Positions 1,598 through 20,581 of a stretch of 22,590 nt of DNA are shown in pieces. Made by a program: the position numbers and the translations under genes. The stretch lies in the IMG/VR virus record IMGVR_UViG_3300029827_000004, positions 23,951 to 46,540 of that record, one strand, 5' to 3'. Position 1 is the stretch's first letter. Each line of letters opens with the position of its first letter. The notes under the pieces were generated by a model that saw nothing but the letters and a program-made list of their open reading frames with translations, did no database searches and was not told the origin of the DNA. Source of the stretch: a virus.

Positions 1598-1670
1598 GCT
1601 GGTATGGCTCAATAGGTAGGGCAACTGATTTGTAATCAGTAGGTTGTTGGTTCAATTCCAACTACTAGCT
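1598..1670 (+). tRNA. tRNA-Thr (anticodon UGU)
   Basis: A full cloverleaf. Acceptor GCTGGTA pairs with TACTAGC (one G-U), D-stem GCTC/GGGC, anticodon stem ACTGA/TCAGT around loop TTTGTAA (anticodon TGT), and T-stem GTTGG/CCAAC around TTCAATT. The discriminator is T and no CCA is encoded. It reads ACA, a codon common in this AT-rich genome. Confidence 0.93.
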
Positions 1671-1793
1671 TCGAACCAACATAGTTTTAAAACAGGTTAC
1701 AGGAAATCAATGACTATGAGATCAAGATTCCTGGCTTAGTGTATGAGTCTATAGGGTTTGTGGGAAATCCAATAATACACAATCCCACAAGTT
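1670..1793 (+). repeat. 124-bp direct repeat, copy 1
   Basis: Begins at the last base of tRNA-Thr and matches 1904-2027 at 122 of 124 positions. The differences are A1701/G1935 and C1723/T1957. It holds a CAGGAA/TTCCTG hairpin and a TTGTGGGA/TCCCACAA hairpin. A1701 lies in the first stem and its change to G keeps pairing as G-U. Confidence 0.9.
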
Positions 1794-1903
1794 GGAGGTA
1801 AAACTCGTAGACATAATTTGGTAGTTGTCTATTCCGCTTGGGGACATTAATTACCAAGACGCACCGTGTATGACGGTATTTATATTCATACTACTACCTA
1901 AAA

Positions 1904-2027
1904 TTCGAACCAACATAGTTTTAAAACAGGTTACGGGAAATCAATGACTATGAGATTAAGATTCCTGGCTTAGTGTATGAGTCTATAGGGTTTGTGGGAA
2001 ATCCAATAATACACAATCCCACAAGTT
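1904..2027 (+). repeat. 124-bp direct repeat, copy 2
   Basis: Second copy of 1670-1793, 110 bp downstream of it. Both sit inside the structured RNA unit, and both hairpins are preserved. Confidence 0.9.
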
Positions 2028-2036
2028 AAAAAAAAA

Positions 2037-2110
2037 CCAGGTTTTGTCCTTCCAAAAAAAGGACACTGTAAAATCAGATTTTGTTCTTCCAAAAAAAAGA
2101 ACATTGTCTG
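2037..2110 (+). repeat. Twin hairpins with covarying stems
   Basis: Hairpin 1: TGTCC (2045-2049) with GGACA (2061-2065), loop TTCC plus seven A, flanked by CAG/CTG. Hairpin 2: TGTTC (2082-2086) with GAACA (2099-2103), loop TTCC plus eight A, flanked by CAGA/TCTG. A stem pair changes from C-G to T-A between copies while the loop is kept, which supports a selected RNA structure. Confidence 0.65.
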
Positions 2111-2130
2111 GACCAATATAATTTTTAAAA

Positions 2131-2162
2131 GGGAAATCCGATAATACACAATCCCACAAGTT
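2131..2162 (+). repeat. Partial third copy of the repeat end
   Basis: Matches the last 32 nt of the 124-bp repeat with one change. It lacks the upstream TTGTGGGA arm, so it keeps only the GGGA/TCCC core of the hairpin. Confidence 0.8.
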
Positions 2163-2197
2163 GACTCAATTACCATGTGTAGAAGGAGACTCTAATT

Positions 2198-3279: not shown

Positions 3280-4017
3280 ATGTCTAAAGCTTATAAATTG
3301 AATCAAGTTATTGCAATTGAAAAAGAAGTAAAAGCAAGGAATCAGCAGACTATTACTAATATTTATAAAACTTTTCAAAAACCAGATTTATTTAATGGAT
3401 TCACAAAGAAATATAGACCATTAGATGATGAAGGTGAAAAGTTTGCAGATGAAAATAAAAAAGTAGTCGCTAATGTTGAATCTTTATTTAATTTAATTAT
3501 AGAGTCAATGACTGAATCTTTTGATTATATATTGACTAAAGATTATGGTAATACGACAGCATTTTCAGATATAGTTGTTGATGATGTTACTATTGTTGAA
3601 CATGTACCAGCTACATTCATCATATTTTTAGAAAAACAGTTAATAGATATAAGAACAATAATTAATTCTATTCCTACATTGGACATTAATGAGGATTGGA
3701 AACCTGATGTAAATAGTAATCTATATAAGACTGAACCTATTGAAACACATAGAACTAAAAAAGTACCTAAAGTTTTAATTAGGTATGAAGCAACAGATAA
3801 GCATCCAGCACAGACAGAAGTATATAATGAAGATGTTATTATAGGTTACTGGAATACTGAAAAATTATCAGGTGCTATACCGATTCCAGATAAAGAAAAA
3901 TTGTTAAAAAAAGTTGAAAAACTTATAAAAGCTGTCAAGATGGCACGTGAAACAGCTAATAGTATTGAAGTAGAAAAAAAACATATAAATTCAATATTTA
4001 AATATTTGTTTGAATAA
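3280..4017 (+). CDS. Conserved protein of unknown function upstream of the permuted tRNAs
   Basis: 245 residues, start set by GGAGAT 10 nt upstream. The sequence is soluble, with segments such as LFNGFTKKYRPLDDEGE, VPATFIIFLEKQL, TEPIETHRTKKVPKVLIRYE, HPAQTEVYNEDVIIGYW and a helical C-terminus. From memory it resembles a conserved family of about 230-245 residues common in Actinobacteria (I believe listed as DUF7873), of unknown function; this needs a profile search. The stop is only 10 nt before the first tRNA, and one promoter and one terminator seem to bracket gene and tRNAs, so the two are made together. This makes it a candidate tRNA-processing or tRNA-binding factor. No known nuclease or ligase motif is visible. 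Confidence 0.85.
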   Translation: MSKAYKLNQVIAIEKEVKARNQQTITNIYKTFQKPDLFNGFTKKYRPLDDEGEKFADENKKVVANVESLFNLIIESMTESFDYILTKDYGNTTAFSDIVVDDVTIVEHVPATFIIFLEKQLIDIRTIINSIPTLDINEDWKPDVNSNLYKTEPIETHRTKKVPKVLIRYEATDKHPAQTEVYNEDVIIGYWNTEKLSGAIPIPDKEKLLKKVEKLIKAVKMARETANSIEVEKKHINSIFKYLFE

Positions 4018-4027
4018 ACTTTAATAT

Positions 4028-4101
4028 GGGATGGTAGCTCAATCGGTAGAGCTTAGGATTAAAAAATCCTAGAGTTAATGGTTCAATTCCATTCGATCCC
4101 A
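4028..4101 (+). tRNA. tRNA with an 8-nt anticodon loop (Phe-like, AAA?)
   Basis: Acceptor GGGATGG/CGATCCC (six pairs, one G-G mismatch), D-stem GCTC/GAGC with GG in the loop, anticodon stem TAGGA/TCCTA, variable region GAGTT, T-stem AATGG/CCATT around TTCAATT, discriminator A. The anticodon loop (4059-4066) is TTAAAAAA, eight nucleotides instead of seven. Alternatively the stem gains a T-A pair and the loop is six. The usual register gives anticodon AAA (UUU, Phe), which is itself unusual because Phe tRNAs normally carry GAA. It could be a frameshift-suppressor-type tRNA, or decayed. Organisation is conventional, unlike its two neighbours. Confidence 0.75.
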
Positions 4102-4132
4102 TTTGAGATAAGCTAAGACTCAAGTTAAATAA

Positions 4133-4224
4133 AGCTATTTTTGGAGGTTCGAATCCTTTCCACGACTTTAATTCTACTATTTGAAATGTCGTGGTGATGC
4201 AATGGCAGACATTAGCTATTAAAA
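4133..4224 (+). tRNA. Circularly permuted tRNA, Leu-like (UAA)
   Basis: The 3' half comes first: anticodon 3' strand AGCTA (4133-4137), TTTTT, T-stem GGAGG/CCTTT around TTCGAAT (4143-4159), acceptor CCACGAC (4160-4166) and T. After a 20-nt linker comes the 5' half: acceptor GTCGTGG (4188-4194), TG, D-arm ATG/CAT with loop CAATGGCAGA, anticodon 5' strand TAGCT (4213-4217) and loop ATTAAAA (4218-4224). The halves join to 72 nt with a perfect 7-bp acceptor, a 5-bp anticodon stem and a 7-nt loop reading UAA. The TGGCAGACA D-arm resembles tRNA-Leu, but the variable region is only 5 nt, unlike normal Leu. Flanks 4102-4130 and 4224-4247 pair (TTTGAGA with TCTCAAA, plus further pairs), extending the helix beyond the anticodon loop. 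The amino acid is tentative; the permuted order is read directly. Confidence 0.82.
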
Positions 4225-4295
4225 TTTAAATTTAAGTTATTCTCAAAAAGTTTAATATAGTATATTTGTTTAAATCGAGGTGTATTGGTAATATT

Positions 4296-4448
4296 GGTTT
4301 CACATTGGTTCAAATCCAATTTCTTGCTTGGCAAGTAAATAATTGTGGCAAGTATAGTGTATATATTTAATATGTTCCTTTCACTAGGGGATTAATAATC
4401 CCCTATATATGCAAGAATAGCATAGTGGTTATGCAAAAACCTTTTTAA
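4296..4448 (+). tRNA. Circularly permuted tRNA, Lys-like (UUU)
   Basis: 3' half: GGTTT (4296-4300), CAC, T-stem ATTGG/CCAAT around TTCAAAT (4304-4320), acceptor TTCTTGC (4321-4327) and T. After an 82-nt linker with a TAGGGGATT/AATCCCCTA hairpin comes the 5' half: acceptor GCAAGAA (4411-4417), TA, D-stem GCAT/ATGC around AGTGGTT (4420-4434), AA, anticodon strand AAACC (4437-4441) and loop TTTTTAA (4442-4448). Joined length is 71 nt. The acceptor is perfect over 7 bp, as are the anticodon and D-stems. The variable region is short (3 nt) and there is an extra A before the anticodon stem. Flanks TGTATTGGT (4281-4289) and ACCAATACA (4455-4463) pair over 9 bp, as in the neighbouring permuted tRNA. 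The UUU reading assumes the loop break falls just after it. Confidence 0.8.
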
Positions 4449-4523
4449 AATTAAACCAATACATTAAACGCCGTTAAACATTGAAGATATATACATTTTA
4501 AAATGATTTGGCAAAAATCAGAT

Positions 4524-4557
4524 AACAAGGCATCATGGATAGGATGCCTTGTTTTAA
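4524..4557 (+). terminator. Terminator of the tRNA operon
   Basis: Perfect 11-bp stem AACAAGGCATC/GATGCCTTGTT, 8-nt loop, TTTT at 4552-4555. It ends the unit that starts at 3148. Confidence 0.85.
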
Positions 4558-12321: not shown

Positions 12322-12732
12322 ATGACTAGTATAGAATTTTATAATAATTTATATAAATTAATCAATGCCGAAAAAGAACAAATATTATTACAATATAAGA
12401 CAAGAAAAATACGAAAAATAGATGAAATGTATACTATGTTTGAATTACAAAATAGACTAATGCATACACAAAAAAGGACCAGGACTAAAAGATATAGAAT
12501 TGGCAAAGATATTTATAATGAGTGGGAAATTTTAAATACAGATTATACATGGTCTAATTTAACAATTGAAAATGTAGACTTATATTCGATTATAAACCAT
12601 AAAGATTCTACAGTATGCCATAAGATATTAAAAGTATTTGCCAGTGGGGAATTGCATATAAGTGTTTATTATGTTGATAGAAAAGAATTCGATAATGTAA
12701 CTAATTTAATTAAGGAGGTAAAGATAGTATGA
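12322..12732 (+). CDS. Protein of unknown function, first gene of the long operon
   Basis: 136 residues with a strong AAGGAGGG site. Not recognised. The N-terminal half is helical and basic (EKEQILLQYKTRKIRKIDEMY, then a KKRTRTKRYR-type patch), which suggests nucleic acid contact. The second half is a likely beta region ending ISVYYVDRKEF. The stop overlaps the next start (ATGA). Confidence 0.7.
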   Translation: MTSIEFYNNLYKLINAEKEQILLQYKTRKIRKIDEMYTMFELQNRLMHTQKRTRTKRYRIGKDIYNEWEILNTDYTWSNLTIENVDLYSIINHKDSTVCHKILKVFASGELHISVYYVDRKEFDNVTNLIKEVKIV

Positions 12733-13097
12733 ATAAACCTAAGAAAATAGTAGTTATGGATTTTGATGGAGTAATTCATAGTTATACATCTGGATGGAAA
12801 GGTGTTACTGAAATACCAGATCCACCAGTAAAAGGGGTTAAAAAGTTTATTGAGGAACTAAGAGAAAATTATAATGTTGTGATTGTATCAAGTAGAAGTG
12901 CTACTCCTGAGGGAAGGTATGCCATAAGAGACTGGCTTTTCTTAAATGACATAAAAGTTGATGATATAGTAAATATAAAACCACCTGCATTTGTGACGAT
13001 AGATGATAGGGCAATTTGTTTTAATGGTTCTTTTGAAGGTCTAAAAGAGCAAATTGATACATTTGAACCCTGGACCAGAAAGAGAAAATTATTATGA
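12729..13097 (+). CDS. HAD-family phosphatase-like protein
   Basis: 122 residues. Motif I is MDFDGVIHSY with nucleophile Asp11 and Asp13; motif II is the Ser-containing VIVSSRSAT (about 52-60); a Lys in INIKPPAFV region and the acidic FVTIDDRAI (about 89-97) give motifs III and IV. The compact size fits a capless phage HAD. Related folds include the 3'-phosphatase half of T4 Pnkp, which repairs cleaved tRNA ends. That is relevant because an RNA ligase lies in the same operon, but this subgroup has no proven substrate. Overlaps both neighbours by 4 nt (ATGA). Confidence 0.8.
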   Translation: MNKPKKIVVMDFDGVIHSYTSGWKGVTEIPDPPVKGVKKFIEELRENYNVVIVSSRSATPEGRYAIRDWLFLNDIKVDDIVNIKPPAFVTIDDRAICFNGSFEGLKEQIDTFEPWTRKRKLL

Positions 13098-15602: not shown

Positions 15603-15871
15603 TGAACATTTTTGACAAAAATTTATATAAACCTATATCAATTAAAGAATTCAGTACACAATTATATCCTGATATAAAATATATAAATATAGAAATAAAT
15701 AAAAATTCAACATTAAAAACTGATATAACATCCTTTGTAAATGATGAAACTCTAAAACCAGGTGATACTATAAAAGTATGGAACAACGGATATATGATGG
15801 AAGTTTTAATAGGTGAAATGGCTATTATATATAAACATGAAACATTAATAATTTATCCAAAAAAGATATGA
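15602..15871 (+). CDS. Small protein of unknown function
   Basis: 89 residues, overlapping the gene before by 1 nt with GAGGT upstream. Beta-rich sequence: NDETLKPGDTIKVWNNGYMM, then VLIGEMAIIYKHETLIIYP. Its last codons and the following leader are tandemly duplicated (15850-15911). Confidence 0.65.
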   Translation: MNIFDKNLYKPISIKEFSTQLYPDIKYINIEINKNSTLKTDITSFVNDETLKPGDTIKVWNNGYMMEVLIGEMAIIYKHETLIIYPKKI

Positions 15872-15911
15872 AAAAGAGGTAATTTATCCAAAAAAATATA
15901 TGAAAAGAGGT
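15850..15911 (+). repeat. 31-bp tandem duplication before the RNA ligase gene
   Basis: Two adjacent copies of a unit starting AATTTATCCAAAAAA and ending AAGAGGT (15850-15880 and 15881-15911) with a few changes. The second copy supplies the ligase ribosome site. Confidence 0.75.
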
Positions 15912-15917
15912 AATAAC

Positions 15918-16523
15918 ATGAGAAAAATACCAACATTATTTAAACGTGATTCAGAAACAAGATTAGTTACCCAGGAAATAACACCAGGATGTGAATGGGT
16001 TTTTGAAGATTTTAAGAATAATATTATAGGTACTAGAAAATATGACGGTACCGCATGTCTTATTAAAAATAATAGAATTTATAAAAGATATGATTGTAAG
16101 AAAGGTAAAAAACCACCAGCAGGTTTTATCCCTTCCCAAGAACCAGATGAAATAACTGGTCATTATCCAGGATGGTTAGAGTGCAATCCTAACAATCCAG
16201 AGGATAAATATCATTTTGAAGGATTATTGAATTTATATGAAACTGAAGCTAAATATAATCCTTTTTATACATTTTACAATGGTACTTATGAATTAATTGG
16301 CGAAAAAATACAAGGCAACCTAGAAAAGATAGATGGTCATATTTTAATCGCACACGGTAATGAAAGAATACCGGTTGGAAAAATTTCTTATGAAACTATA
16401 AAAGAATACCTTTTTAATAATGATATAGAAGGTATAGTATTTTATCATTTCAATGTGGATACATTACATTCTACAATGTGTAAAATTAAAAAGAAAGATT
16501 TTGGATTCAAGAGAGGTAATTAA
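15918..16523 (+). CDS. RNA ligase of the RLIG1 (C12orf29)-like family
   Basis: 201 residues; ATG 15918 follows AAGAGG by 7 nt. Nucleotidyltransferase motif I is GTRKYDGTACL with the predicted adenylated Lys41. Then come KRYDCKKGKKPP (51-67, Arg/Asp of motif Ia type), GHYPGWLE (81-88), YELIGEKIQGN (124-134, acidic motif III), HILIAHG (141-147), IEGIVFY (170-176, motif IV) and CKIKKKDFGF (188-197, Lys pair of motif V). Order and wording match vertebrate RLIG1 (EKVDGT, GHIPGW, LELIGTNINGN, LLIPHG, IEGIVW) as I recall it, an enzyme joining 5'-phosphate and 3'-hydroxyl RNA ends. As last gene of a phage operon it could seal tRNA halves: the permuted tRNAs at 4102-4465 need a join in the anticodon loop. 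That link is inference. Confidence 0.85.
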   Translation: MRKIPTLFKRDSETRLVTQEITPGCEWVFEDFKNNIIGTRKYDGTACLIKNNRIYKRYDCKKGKKPPAGFIPSQEPDEITGHYPGWLECNPNNPEDKYHFEGLLNLYETEAKYNPFYTFYNGTYELIGEKIQGNLEKIDGHILIAHGNERIPVGKISYETIKEYLFNNDIEGIVFYHFNVDTLHSTMCKIKKKDFGFKRGN

Positions 16524-18843: not shown

Positions 18844-18878
18844 AAAAACCTAGTTTTTAATTATCTAGGTTTTTTTTT
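18844..18878. terminator. Two-way terminator between convergent genes
   Basis: Stem AAAAACCTAG/CTAGGTTTTT (18844-18853 with 18865-18874), 11-nt loop, T-run on the plus strand and matching A-run for the minus strand. The stop of the minus-strand membrane protein overlaps it. Confidence 0.85.
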
Positions 18879-20400
18879 ATTTCGCAACTTTTTCATTTGT
18901 TTTATTATTTGTTCTTCTAGTTGTAGTATTTTCTGTAAATGCTAGACCGTCGTTCACTAAATTTTTTCTGACTTTTTTCCAATCATTATCTTTAGTAATT
19001 AAATATTTGAAAGTTTTTTTTGATATGACTTCATTTTCTTTTAAAGCTTTTACCTGATTTTTAATAATTGCATATTTGTCCCAAAATGTTAATTCCTCAG
19101 ATTCTAAGCTATCCTTAAAAATTTTTGTCTTATCCTTAAAATTTTTAGGATTATCCTTAAAATTTTCTGGGTTATCCTTAAAATTTTCTAGGTTATCCTT
19201 AAAAAATTTTGTCTTATCCTTAAAATTTTTAGGATTATCCTTAAAATTTTCTGGGTTATCCTTAAAATTTTTTGGGTTATCCTTAAAATTAATTGAATGT
19301 TTTAAGTTATCCTTAAAATTTTCTGGGTTATCCTTAAAATTTTTAAGGTTGTCTTTATCTTGACTAGAAATTCCTAGTATACCTTTGGTATCACTTGTTT
19401 CTAGCTGTTTTTTATCTTTAAAATTCTCAAGCTTGCTTAAGCTGTTCATATTATTATCCTTAAAATTTTTAGGATTGTCTTTAAAATCATTTAAAATTTC
19501 TAAGCTATACTCAGATGTTTTTAGGTCATCCTTAAAATTTTCTGAGTTATCCTTAAAAAGTTTTAGGTTATCCTTAAAATTTTTAGGATTATCCTTAAAA
19601 TTTTCTGAGTTATCCTTAAAAAGTTTTAAGTTATCCTTAAAATTTTTAGGATTATCTTTAAAAATTTTTAAGTTATCTTTAAAATTTTTTCTTGTCTCAA
19701 AATATGGTTTCATTAATTTTATTCTTAGCCGATCAAAAAAAATTGTTTTCAACATATGCAAGATCGATATTTTATCCTGCATTTCATTTTCGATAGGTGT
19801 AGTAAAATTTTTATATTTCTTATCGTGTTTTAAAGTGTTTATTGTTATAATACTAATATCAAGCATAATACATATTAAAATAGTAACTATTTGACCTATT
19901 AAAGGTGTATCTAATCTTATTACTTTAATTAAGGTGTTATAATTTCCAATGATACTAATGGGAACTAGTATCATTGTTATCATATTTATAACACCATAAC
20001 TTTTATTAAAATATAAATATACCTGAGTCTTAATAGCAGCTACATAAAAAGTAAGTATTTGAATAATCGTTAAAACTACTATTAAGGCGATGGATAGAAA
20101 ACTAACATAAAACAATCCATATCCCATAGGTGTTAATATAATAGAAGACAGCATCAATAAAAATAATAAAACTGTCATAAATTTAGTATTAGCTATACTT
20201 TCAAGATAATTTAATTTGCTTTCAACCCTATCGTGATCCATTCTTATTTTAAAAGCATCTATTTCTTTTTGTTTTAATTCAGTTTCTAGCATTAGATTTT
20301 CTACTCTATTTTTAACATTAGTCTTTCTTATATCTTTTTTAAATTTATTACAAAAATCAATTAAATTTACTACTACATTTTTATTTTCTTTATTACTCAT
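18877..20400 (-). CDS. Membrane protein with a long FKDN heptad-repeat domain
   Basis: 507 residues from the ATG at 20400, chosen because AGAAGGTGA lies just before it and it overlaps the upstream stop by 8 nt; an ATG at 20418 has no ribosome site. Order: a polar helical N-terminus (1-72), four hydrophobic segments (about 74-90, 95-120, 135-155, 168-190), a short linker, then about 210 residues (about 235-445) built from heptads of the form NFKDNPK or NFKDNLE with 22 copies of FKD, then a basic C-terminus (DKYAIIKNQVKAL, then KTFKYLITKDNDWKKVRKNL) that could be a small winged-helix-like domain. Last gene of a minus-strand operon under a separate promoter. I do not know the family. A lysogenic-conversion or exclusion role is conceivable, unproven. 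Confidence 0.75.
   Translation of the reverse strand: MSNKENKNVVVNLIDFCNKFKKDIRKTNVKNRVENLMLETELKQKEIDAFKIRMDHDRVESKLNYLESIANTKFMTVLLFLLMLSSIILTPMGYGLFYVSFLSIALIVVLTIIQILTFYVAAIKTQVYLYFNKSYGVINMITMILVPISIIGNYNTLIKVIRLDTPLIGQIVTILICIMLDISIITINTLKHDKKYKNFTTPIENEMQDKISILHMLKTIFFDRLRIKLMKPYFETRKNFKDNLKIFKDNPKNFKDNLKLFKDNSENFKDNPKNFKDNLKLFKDNSENFKDDLKTSEYSLEILNDFKDNPKNFKDNNMNSLSKLENFKDKKQLETSDTKGILGISSQDKDNLKNFKDNPENFKDNLKHSINFKDNPKNFKDNPENFKDNPKNFKDKTKFFKDNLENFKDNPENFKDNPKNFKDKTKIFKDSLESEELTFWDKYAIIKNQVKALKENEVISKKTFKYLITKDNDWKKVRKNLVNDGLAFTENTTTRRTNNKTNEKVAK
19109..19690 (-). repeat. 21-bp coding repeat array
   Basis: Plus-strand units of the type TTATCCTTAAAATTTTTAGGA recur at 21-bp steps (one heptad each), with a few interrupted units around 19330-19430 and 19490-19520. 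All lie in frame in the membrane protein, so slippage would change length by whole heptads. Confidence 0.9.
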
Positions 20401-20581
20401 TAATTTCACCTTCTTCATTATAATTTATATATCTTTCATTATATTTATACTTCCTTATATTTTTTATTTCTTTACCTTTAGTTTTATAAAGTTTTTCAAT
20501 AGCTTTATCATTTGTACTATCAATAAAAAATATCTTATTACCAGTGACAAAAGCGTATAAAGCTTTTATTGTTTTTTTCAT
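20393..20581 (-). CDS. Small protein of unknown function in the minus-strand operon
   Basis: 62 residues. The start overlaps the stop of the RHH gene (ATGA). AAGGAATG gives the ribosome site. N-terminal half beta-like (IKALYAFVTGNKIFFIDST), C-terminal half basic and helical, ending in an acidic tail. Not recognised. Coupled to both neighbours by overlaps, so the three products probably act together. Confidence 0.7.
   Translation of the reverse strand: MKKTIKALYAFVTGNKIFFIDSTNDKAIEKLYKTKGKEIKNIRKYKYNERYINYNEEGEINE

What the first reader, a model, noticed from the sequence alone, without database searches (positions are those of the whole stretch)
15918..16523. RLIG1-type RNA ligase as the likely sealing enzyme for the permuted tRNAs
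The motifs KYDGT, ELIGE, EGIV and the final CKIKKK fit an RNA ligase that joins 5'-phosphate and 3'-hydroxyl ends. The permuted tRNAs need exactly one join, in the anticodon loop. T4 uses a ligase to reseal tRNA-Lys cut in the anticodon loop by PrrC. Here a Lys-like (UUU) tRNA is itself assembled by joining that loop, so ligase plus permuted tRNA may form a tRNA supply that tolerates host anticodon nucleases. The joining role and the defence idea are inference.
Basis: partly seen in the sequence, partly recalled or inferred. Interest (0 to 1): 0.82.

Follow-up and report, generated by a model that had tools for sequence, protein, structure and literature searches.

The report
Phage tRNA-repair ligase near tRNA-mimic RNAs
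A small phage carries a genuine RNA-sealing enzyme of a type known to mend cut tRNAs, but the two inside-out tRNA-like genes it was thought to assemble look more like tRNA mimics that need no joining.

Summary
Window 15918-16523 (+) encodes a 201-residue RLIG1-type 5'-phosphate/3'-OH RNA ligase: the profile matches Yasminevirus RLIG1 (9c6l) at E 1e-22, and the AlphaFold2 model (pLDDT 92) has 9c6l as its best Foldseek hit. Lys41 and the other motif residues are invariant in 32 aligned relatives. A paper reports that bacterial and phage RLIG1 homologs reseal tRNA halves cut in the anticodon loop.

The "permuted tRNAs" also exist. Two elements (4133-4217, 4296-4441) have the 3' tRNA half before the 5' half, are absent from shuffled sequence, and are conserved in three other contigs with compensatory changes.

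The proposed link is not supported. The same inside-out architecture is known from bacterial Y RNAs (YrlA), which work without joining. It recurs beside Ro60 genes in five complete phages that all lack this ligase; two of the five lack every RNA-ligase family tested. Nearly all of 50 whole ligase-bearing records have no such module. In the window family the "anticodon" of element 2 differs in all three relatives.

Best reading: the ligase repairs cleaved tRNAs, and the RNAs are Y-RNA-like tRNA mimics. They lack a Ro60 gene and the usual leader motif, so spliced permuted pre-tRNAs are unlikely but not excluded.

The parts
15918..16523 (+). RLIG1-type RNA ligase, 201 aa, active-site Lys41 in KYDG
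12729..13097 (+). HAD-family phosphatase, possible 3'-end healing partner (weak: below the Pfam cut-off)
   Evidence: HAD_SAK_2 E 0.0057, 17.5 bits vs cut-off 27.5; phrog_415 polynucleotide kinase E 2e-5, phrog_1238 'phosphoheptose isomerase' E 6e-14
4028..4101 (+). conventional-order tRNA-like gene with an 8-nt anticodon loop (TTAAAAAA)
4103..4246 (+). element 1: permuted tRNA-like RNA with its basal stem (4103-4108 and 4111-4114 with 4235-4238 and 4241-4246)
4133..4166 (+). element 1, 3' half: AC3' strand, T-arm, acceptor 3' strand CCACGAC
4188..4217 (+). element 1, 5' half: acceptor GTCGTGG, D-arm, AC5' strand TAGCT
4268..4479 (+). element 2: permuted tRNA-like RNA with basal stem (4268-4273 and 4281-4289 with 4455-4463 and 4474-4479)
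4296..4327 (+). element 2, 3' half: GGTTT, T-arm, acceptor TTCTTGC
4411..4441 (+). element 2, 5' half: acceptor GCAAGAA, D-arm, AAACC
4524..4557 (+). terminator-like hairpin AACAAGGCATC...GATGCCTTGTTTT that would end the tRNA / element 1 / element 2 transcript (read by eye)
   Evidence: sequence; no scan was run
1598..1670 (+). conventional tRNA-Thr(TGT)

Best explanation
The gene encodes an RLIG1-type ATP-dependent RNA ligase. Lys41 is adenylylated, AMP passes to a 5'-phosphate, and a 3'-OH attacks to seal the strand. Its most likely job is resealing tRNAs cut in the anticodon loop by host anticodon nucleases, perhaps after 3'-end clean-up by the HAD phosphatase in the same genome. The two permuted elements are most likely Y-RNA-like tRNA mimics: one unspliced transcript folds into a long basal stem topped by acceptor, T and D arms. 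They may occupy tRNA-binding enzymes or nucleases and need no ligation. Shown here: ligase homology, fold and motif conservation; the permuted architecture and its conservation. From the literature: RLIG1 chemistry on tRNA halves; YrlA architecture. Inferred: the repair role in this phage, the HAD partnership, and the mimic or decoy role of the RNAs.
For: Ligase. Activity of relatives: PMC11494293 (abstract and passages) reports that bacterial and viral homologs ligate tRNA-Lys halves cut at positions 32/33 and predicts an anti-immunity role for viral RLIG1. The ligase is widespread, mostly without permuted modules (genome and viral scans). Y-RNA reading: L146 units match RF02553 YrlA (E 1e-5 and 1e-4, though under the gathering score). 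Model R1 finds permuted modules beside Ro60/TROVE genes in Chryseobacterium islands and viral contigs L136/L139 and in 5 named phages. PMC8394870 (passages) describes YrlA as a long 5'/3' basal stem plus D, T and acceptor arms. In the window family the basal stem, acceptor, T and D arms are kept (97.8% and 94.4% of pair cells) while the anticodon loop of element 2 drifts.
Against: The phage record has no Ro60/TROVE gene and no YrlA model match. The leader motif TACTTC/TTCTTCG, present in 12 of 16 other modules, is absent from 8 of 8 window-family elements (motif chosen after seeing the sequences). Linkers are long and variable (21-89 nt), as expected if a linker is cut out. The loop side nearest the 5' half carries 6-7 extra nt, about an anticodon loop (my reading). 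No healing kinase was identified in the window proteins searched. No experiment exists for this protein.
Confidence: 0.62

Rival explanations
1. One reading: elements 1 and 2 are permuted pre-tRNAs. A nuclease cuts at the anticodon loop, this ligase joins the halves into a circle, and RNase P and RNase Z remove the linker, giving functional tRNAs resistant to host anticodon nucleases.
For: Correct permuted order with intact acceptor, T and D arms. The leader/trailer stem extends the anticodon stem and covaries. RLIG1 enzymes prefer anticodon-loop joins with 5'-phosphate/3'-OH ends (PMC11494293 passages). The elements sit in a tRNA cluster and lack the Ro60 leader motif. U33 can be read in every loop.
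Against: The anticodon of element 2 changes in each of three relatives. Element 1 reads UAA but has no long variable arm, and both elements have U after the acceptor strand; neither fits tRNA-Leu or tRNA-Lys (identity rules recalled). Splicing is not required for the same architecture in Y RNAs. Permuted modules exist without this ligase in 5 of 5 module-bearing Ro60 phages tested.
Confidence: 0.12
2. The elements are true Ro60-binding Y RNAs that use a host Ro60 protein; the ligase belongs to the same RNA-repair theme, as in viral contig L136 (ligase, Y RNA, Ro60 gene in order).
For: Ligase, permuted module and TROVE are adjacent in L136 and L139. TROVE lies in 5 of the 6 Chryseobacterium/Weeksellaceae loci that carry ligase and modules. 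Bacterial rsr-yrl-rtc operons are known (PMC7790460 passages).
Against: No TROVE gene in the record, no leader motif, no YrlA match. Host unknown.
Confidence: 0.18
3. The ligase serves a function unrelated to tRNA, such as mRNA or rRNA repair or tail-fibre assembly as for T4 Rnl1 (recalled); the RNAs are unrelated passengers.
For: The ligase gene lies about 11.5 kb from the RNAs, in a run of unknown small genes. Most relatives have no tRNA-like partner.
Against: RLIG1 homologs bind and ligate tRNA (PMC11494293). Ligase islands in Chryseobacterium hold tRNA arrays, an Rnl2-type ligase and Ro60.
Confidence: 0.1

Closest known systems
RLIG1 / C12orf29 RNA ligases (Pfam PF17720, PHROG 14301, PDB 9c6l)
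   Same: Motifs, fold and active-site lysine; profile match E 1e-22; fold match
   Different: Shorter (201 aa against 277 aa for the solved chain) and about 20% identical to the solved structure; the window protein alone scores under the Pfam cut-off
RLIG1-type ligases of Cellulophaga phage phi10:1 and Mycobacterium phages such as Gengar
   Same: 51% and 40-41% identity over 98-99% of the query; some records already annotated 'RNA ligase'
   Different: In those two whole records the only R1 hits overlap normal tRNA genes
T4 Rnl1/Pnkp repair of PrrC-cut tRNA-Lys
   Same: Likely same use of the chemistry (PMC11494293 discussion passage)
   Different: Different ligase family; no Pnkp-like kinase identified in the window proteins searched
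YrlA bacterial Y RNAs (RF02553)
   Same: Permuted tRNA-like module on a basal stem
   Different: Window elements lack Ro60, the leader motif and a YrlA score; longer linkers
Permuted tRNA genes of red/green algae and archaea (recalled)
   Same: 3' half before 5' half, paired leader and trailer
   Different: No bulge-helix-bulge motif conserved across the relatives (my reading); splicing endonucleases of that kind are not known in bacteria (recalled); anticodon not conserved

Membership tests
RLIG1 RNA ligase | KxDG active-site lysine and motifs I, III, IV, V | tested here: met
   K41, D43, G44, R57, E125, E171, G172, K189 invariant in 32 relatives
RLIG1 RNA ligase | Sequence-profile relationship | tested here: met
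   9-row profile to 9c6l E 1e-22; single protein vs Pfam RLIG1 E 2e-4, under cut-off; 9 of 9 members match
RLIG1 RNA ligase | Fold | tested here: met
   Foldseek top hits 1-12 all 9c6l/9c6m
RLIG1 RNA ligase | Seals 5'-phosphate/3'-OH RNA | not testable with these tools
   Inferred from homologs (PMC11494293)
YrlA Y RNA | tRNA-like module in permuted order on a 5'/3' basal stem | tested here: met
YrlA Y RNA | Ro60/Rsr gene nearby | tested here: not met
   PF05731 absent from G000 at E<=10
YrlA Y RNA | RF02553 covariance match | tested here: not met
   (E<=10)
YrlA Y RNA | Leader motif shared by Ro60-linked modules | tested here: not met
   0 of 8 window-family elements against 12 of 16 other modules (post hoc motif)
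Permuted tRNA gene | 3' half upstream of 5' half with all arms | tested here: met
Permuted tRNA gene | Conserved anticodon | tested here: not met
   Element 2: three relatives, three loops; element 1 keeps UAA
Permuted tRNA gene | Joined, charged tRNA product | not testable with these tools
   Needs RNA from infected cells
T4-like tRNA repair system | Ligase plus end-healing phosphatase and kinase | tested here: inconclusive
   HAD weak match; no kinase among the window proteins given to those two calls (10 each, partly the same)

The most novel reading that the evidence does not exclude
A bacterial virus expresses circularly permuted pre-tRNAs that are cut at the anticodon loop and joined by its own RLIG1-type ligase, giving the first permuted tRNAs matured in a bacterial cell and a tRNA supply coupled to anticodon-loop repair.
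Probability: 0.1. Interest if true: 0.92.

Novelty: new member of a known kind. Interest (0 to 1): 0.48.

Why it matters
The ligase extends RLIG1-type tRNA-repair enzymes to a small, probably Firmicutes-infecting phage. The RNAs in the same genome show that 'permuted tRNA' calls in phages should first be checked against Y RNAs. They also define a Ro60-less group of permuted tRNA-like RNAs whose fate (spliced tRNA or mimic) one RNA-seq experiment could settle. Repeated neighbourhoods of ligase, Y RNA and Ro60 suggest that tRNA mimics and anticodon-loop repair may belong to one counter-defence theme.

Tried and rejected
Rejected: group I permuted intron-exon origin (flanks of about 30-60 nt are too short; recalled size rule). 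Rejected: chance (0 in 200 shuffles). Rejected as positives: high R1 scores in records W05, G036, W02, W01 and G012, which overlap normal tRNA genes, as do L022 2467-2568 and the L146 minus-strand hits near 3500-3700 (ARAGORN tRNAs); all were dropped from my module counts. R1 scores of window, L014, L016, L022 15843, L028 18494 and L146 18885 are by construction, because those elements trained it. The 11 other training rows were normal tRNAs rearranged by script (12 made, one left out when typed).

The control set of 80 loci gave 0 modules of 30 bits or more, but R1 found few tRNA-like matches of any kind in it (6 in all), so those phages probably carry few tRNAs and the control is loose. No homologue of the protein upstream of the tRNA cluster was found in 391 Clostridia genomes (no positive control). 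Patterns for both D-arms over viral contigs found only the known relatives plus one normal suppressor tRNA. Folding elements 1 and 2 alone gave z -1.5 and -2.5, and the minimum-energy fold of element 1 does not show the full cloverleaf. Covariation for element 1 is weak (1 double change, 177 of 500 shuffles reach it). The aligner misplaced the anticodon stem of element 2, so its pair counts there are low quality.

Literature: searches 'permuted tRNA'+phage (6 papers held the terms, 5 listed), 'permuted tRNA'+bacteria from 2015 (26, 25 listed), RLIG1 (13, 12 listed), Y RNA+YrlA (5), Ro60+Y RNA+bacterial+tRNA-like (4), phage+Ro60+Y RNA (15) and phage+tRNA+decoy+anticodon nuclease (6). The titles and abstract starts listed showed no report of phage-encoded permuted tRNAs. 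Primary Y-RNA papers are not held and are cited only through PMC8394870.

Full report
What is there. The ORF at 15918-16523 (+) gives a 201-residue protein. Pfam RLIG1 is a sub-threshold hit for the single protein (E 2e-4), but PHROG 14301 'RNA ligase' is strong (E 1.4e-59). A nine-row profile finds Yasminevirus RLIG1, 9c6l/9c6m, at E 1e-22/2e-21. The AlphaFold2 model from 32 sequences has mean pLDDT 91.9 and pTM 0.85, and its twelve Foldseek PDB hits with E under 0.001 are all 9c6l/9c6m chains. Lys41 and the other motif residues are invariant in the 32 rows. So 'RLIG1-type RNA ligase' is right.

How such ligases act. PMC11494293 (abstract, outline and passages) reports that RLIG1 joins 5'-phosphate to 3'-OH, that several bacterial and viral homologs efficiently ligated tRNA-Lys halves cut in the anticodon loop, and it lists one bacterial and one 'C. 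phage' protein among its constructs. It predicts a viral role against host immunity. Which phage 'C. phage' is, the passages do not say.

Distribution. tblastn finds relatives in 20 of 50,697 phage records. A profile-guided scan finds 75 loci in bacterial genome contigs and 320 in viral contigs, of which 80 were kept. All 163 ligase loci held were re-confirmed by a ligase HMM; none of the 80 control loci has one.

The permuted elements. Two elements follow a conventional-order tRNA-like gene at 4028-4101. Element 1 has its 3' half at 4133-4166 and 5' half at 4188-4217 (linker 21 nt); element 2 has 4296-4327 and 4411-4441 (linker 83 nt). The relaxed detector gave 0 hits in 200 shuffles of the window. 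The elements recur in L013, L014 and L016/L017, with acceptor TTCTTGC/GCAAGAA changing to TTCCTGC/GCAGGAA. In element 2, 3 of 36 pairs change on both sides and 97.8% of cells pair, against 32-44% when the partners are slid. Element 1 gives 94.4% with one double change, not above shuffles. All these relatives' contigs end before the ligase position (L014 reaches window 14090), so linkage inside this phage family is untested.

What the elements resemble. The detector also hit ligase-bearing loci L022, L028 and L146 (0 hits in one shuffle of all 171 loci). L146 units match Rfam YrlA, the bacterial Y RNA, at E 1e-5 and 1e-4 (below the gathering score). L022 carries a TROVE/Ro60 protein (E 2e-31), and TROVE lies in 7 of the ligase loci: L022, L025, L028, L029, L034, L136 and L139. 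In L136 the order is ligase, Y-RNA array, TROVE. PMC8394870 (passages) describes YrlA as a long stem of the two ends plus D, T and acceptor arms: the permuted order, without any joining. PMC7790460 (passages) states that the YrlA tRNA-like domain is not a substrate of the anticodon nuclease and may inhibit it.

Does module go with ligase? I built a covariance model, R1, of the permuted module. On ligase loci, hits of 34 bits or more outside normal tRNA genes lie in L020, L022, L025, L028, L029, L034, L136, L139 and L146, that is 9 of 163 (L136 and L139 are near-copies). On 80 control loci the best score is 23.2 bits. Over 50 whole ligase-bearing records (50 of the 68 first asked for), 37 have no R1 hit at E 1e-4 or better and 13 have one. 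Nine of those 13 were inspected: seven (W01, W02, W04, W05, W06, G012, G036, G044 among the loci viewed) show hits on normal tRNA genes, while G032 (L146) and G026 (L136) show modules outside them; the remaining low-scoring records G015, G020 and G043 (20.9-23.3 bits) were not inspected. TROVE occurs in 1 of 50. Conversely, TROVE occurs in 93 of 50,697 phage records. I fetched 8, and modules of 44-60 bits lie near TROVE in 5: Olaya, CcrColossus, Rhizobium TM30, Gurke and Atuin. In Olaya and Gurke one module overlaps a single ARAGORN tRNA call, which I read as a misannotation. None of the 8 has the RLIG1-type ligase, while both positive controls do. Of the 5, Olaya and TM30 also lack PF09414, RtcB and PF09511; CcrColossus has PF09414 and RtcB, Gurke RtcB, and Atuin PF09511. 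So permuted modules neither need nor imply this ligase.

Are the window elements Y RNAs? They fail three tests: no TROVE in the 46.5-kb record, no YrlA match, and no TACTTC/TTCTTCG leader motif in 8 of 8 window-family elements against 12 of 16 other modules (I chose the motif after seeing the sequences). The four motif-less others are L020, L025 and two hits in L022. The window elements are therefore Y-RNA-like in architecture, not members by these tests.

Are they spliced tRNAs? Against: the loop of element 2 reads TTTTTAA, ATAAAAT and ATTAACT in three relatives, and stem boundaries are ambiguous. Element 1 reads UAA with a 5-nt variable region, and U follows the acceptor strand in every element; by recalled identity rules neither fits tRNA-Leu or tRNA-Lys. 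Neighbouring conventional-order tRNAs also have odd loops: 8 nt in the window and 6 nt in L016. For: linkers are long and variable, the basal stem covaries, and the 5'-half side has 6-7 extra loop nucleotides. I put the spliced reading near 0.1.

Conclusion. The ligase is real and belongs to a known tRNA-sealing family. Its best-supported role is repair of cleaved tRNAs, and the proposed joining of permuted tRNAs is not supported. The weak HAD phosphatase match at 12729-13097 could be a healing partner; PMC7824862 (passages) notes such pairs, and TROVE proteins, in jumbo phages. The terminase of this phage is closest to those of Weizmannia and Bacillus phages (38.5% and 35.8% identity), which is the basis for calling the host probably Firmicutes.

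Noticed in passing
L136 10560-11060 (copy in L139): Viral contig with the RLIG1-type ligase, an array of Y-RNA-like units sharing GTAGTG...TACTTC leaders, and a TROVE/Ro60 gene in direct succession.
   Followed up: partly
L022, L025, L028, L029, L034 (Chryseobacterium), L020 (Weeksellaceae): RNA-repair islands: in L022 a tRNA array, RNase H-like protein, two ATP-grasp proteins, an Rnl2-type ligase, the RLIG1-type ligase, a beta-lactamase-fold protein, SPFH protein, TROVE, and permuted RNA modules.
   Followed up: partly
L025 15651-15800, L022 15843-15995, L020 5700-5769: A tandem of two permuted tRNA-like modules without the Ro60 leader motif; in L025 the second carries a complete anticodon arm with loop CTTTTAA (UUU), while L022 has CAATAAC there.
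   Followed up: partly
L264 2291-2361, L268 2272-2346, L265 1634-1701: tRNA calls beside TROVE genes (ARAGORN tRNA-Asn in Olaya; annotated tRNA-Ser in Gurke and tRNA-Gln in CcrColossus) overlap permuted-module hits and may be misannotated Y RNAs.
   Followed up: partly
window 4028-4101; L016 9544-9616: Conventional-order tRNA genes with 8-nt and 6-nt anticodon loops, possibly decoys or nuclease-resistant variants.
   Followed up: no
window 18877-20418 (-): 513-aa protein with many near-identical NFKDNLKx-type repeats between a membrane-like N-terminal part and the C-terminus; only a weak YtxH match.
   Followed up: no
window 1672-2165: Repeated GTTTTAAAACAGGTTAC...AATCCCACAAG blocks after the tRNA-Thr gene.
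   Followed up: no
window 15851-15918: Short direct duplication of the sequence before the ligase start codon (ATTTATCCAAAAAA..ATATGAAAA.GAGGTAAT).
   Followed up: no
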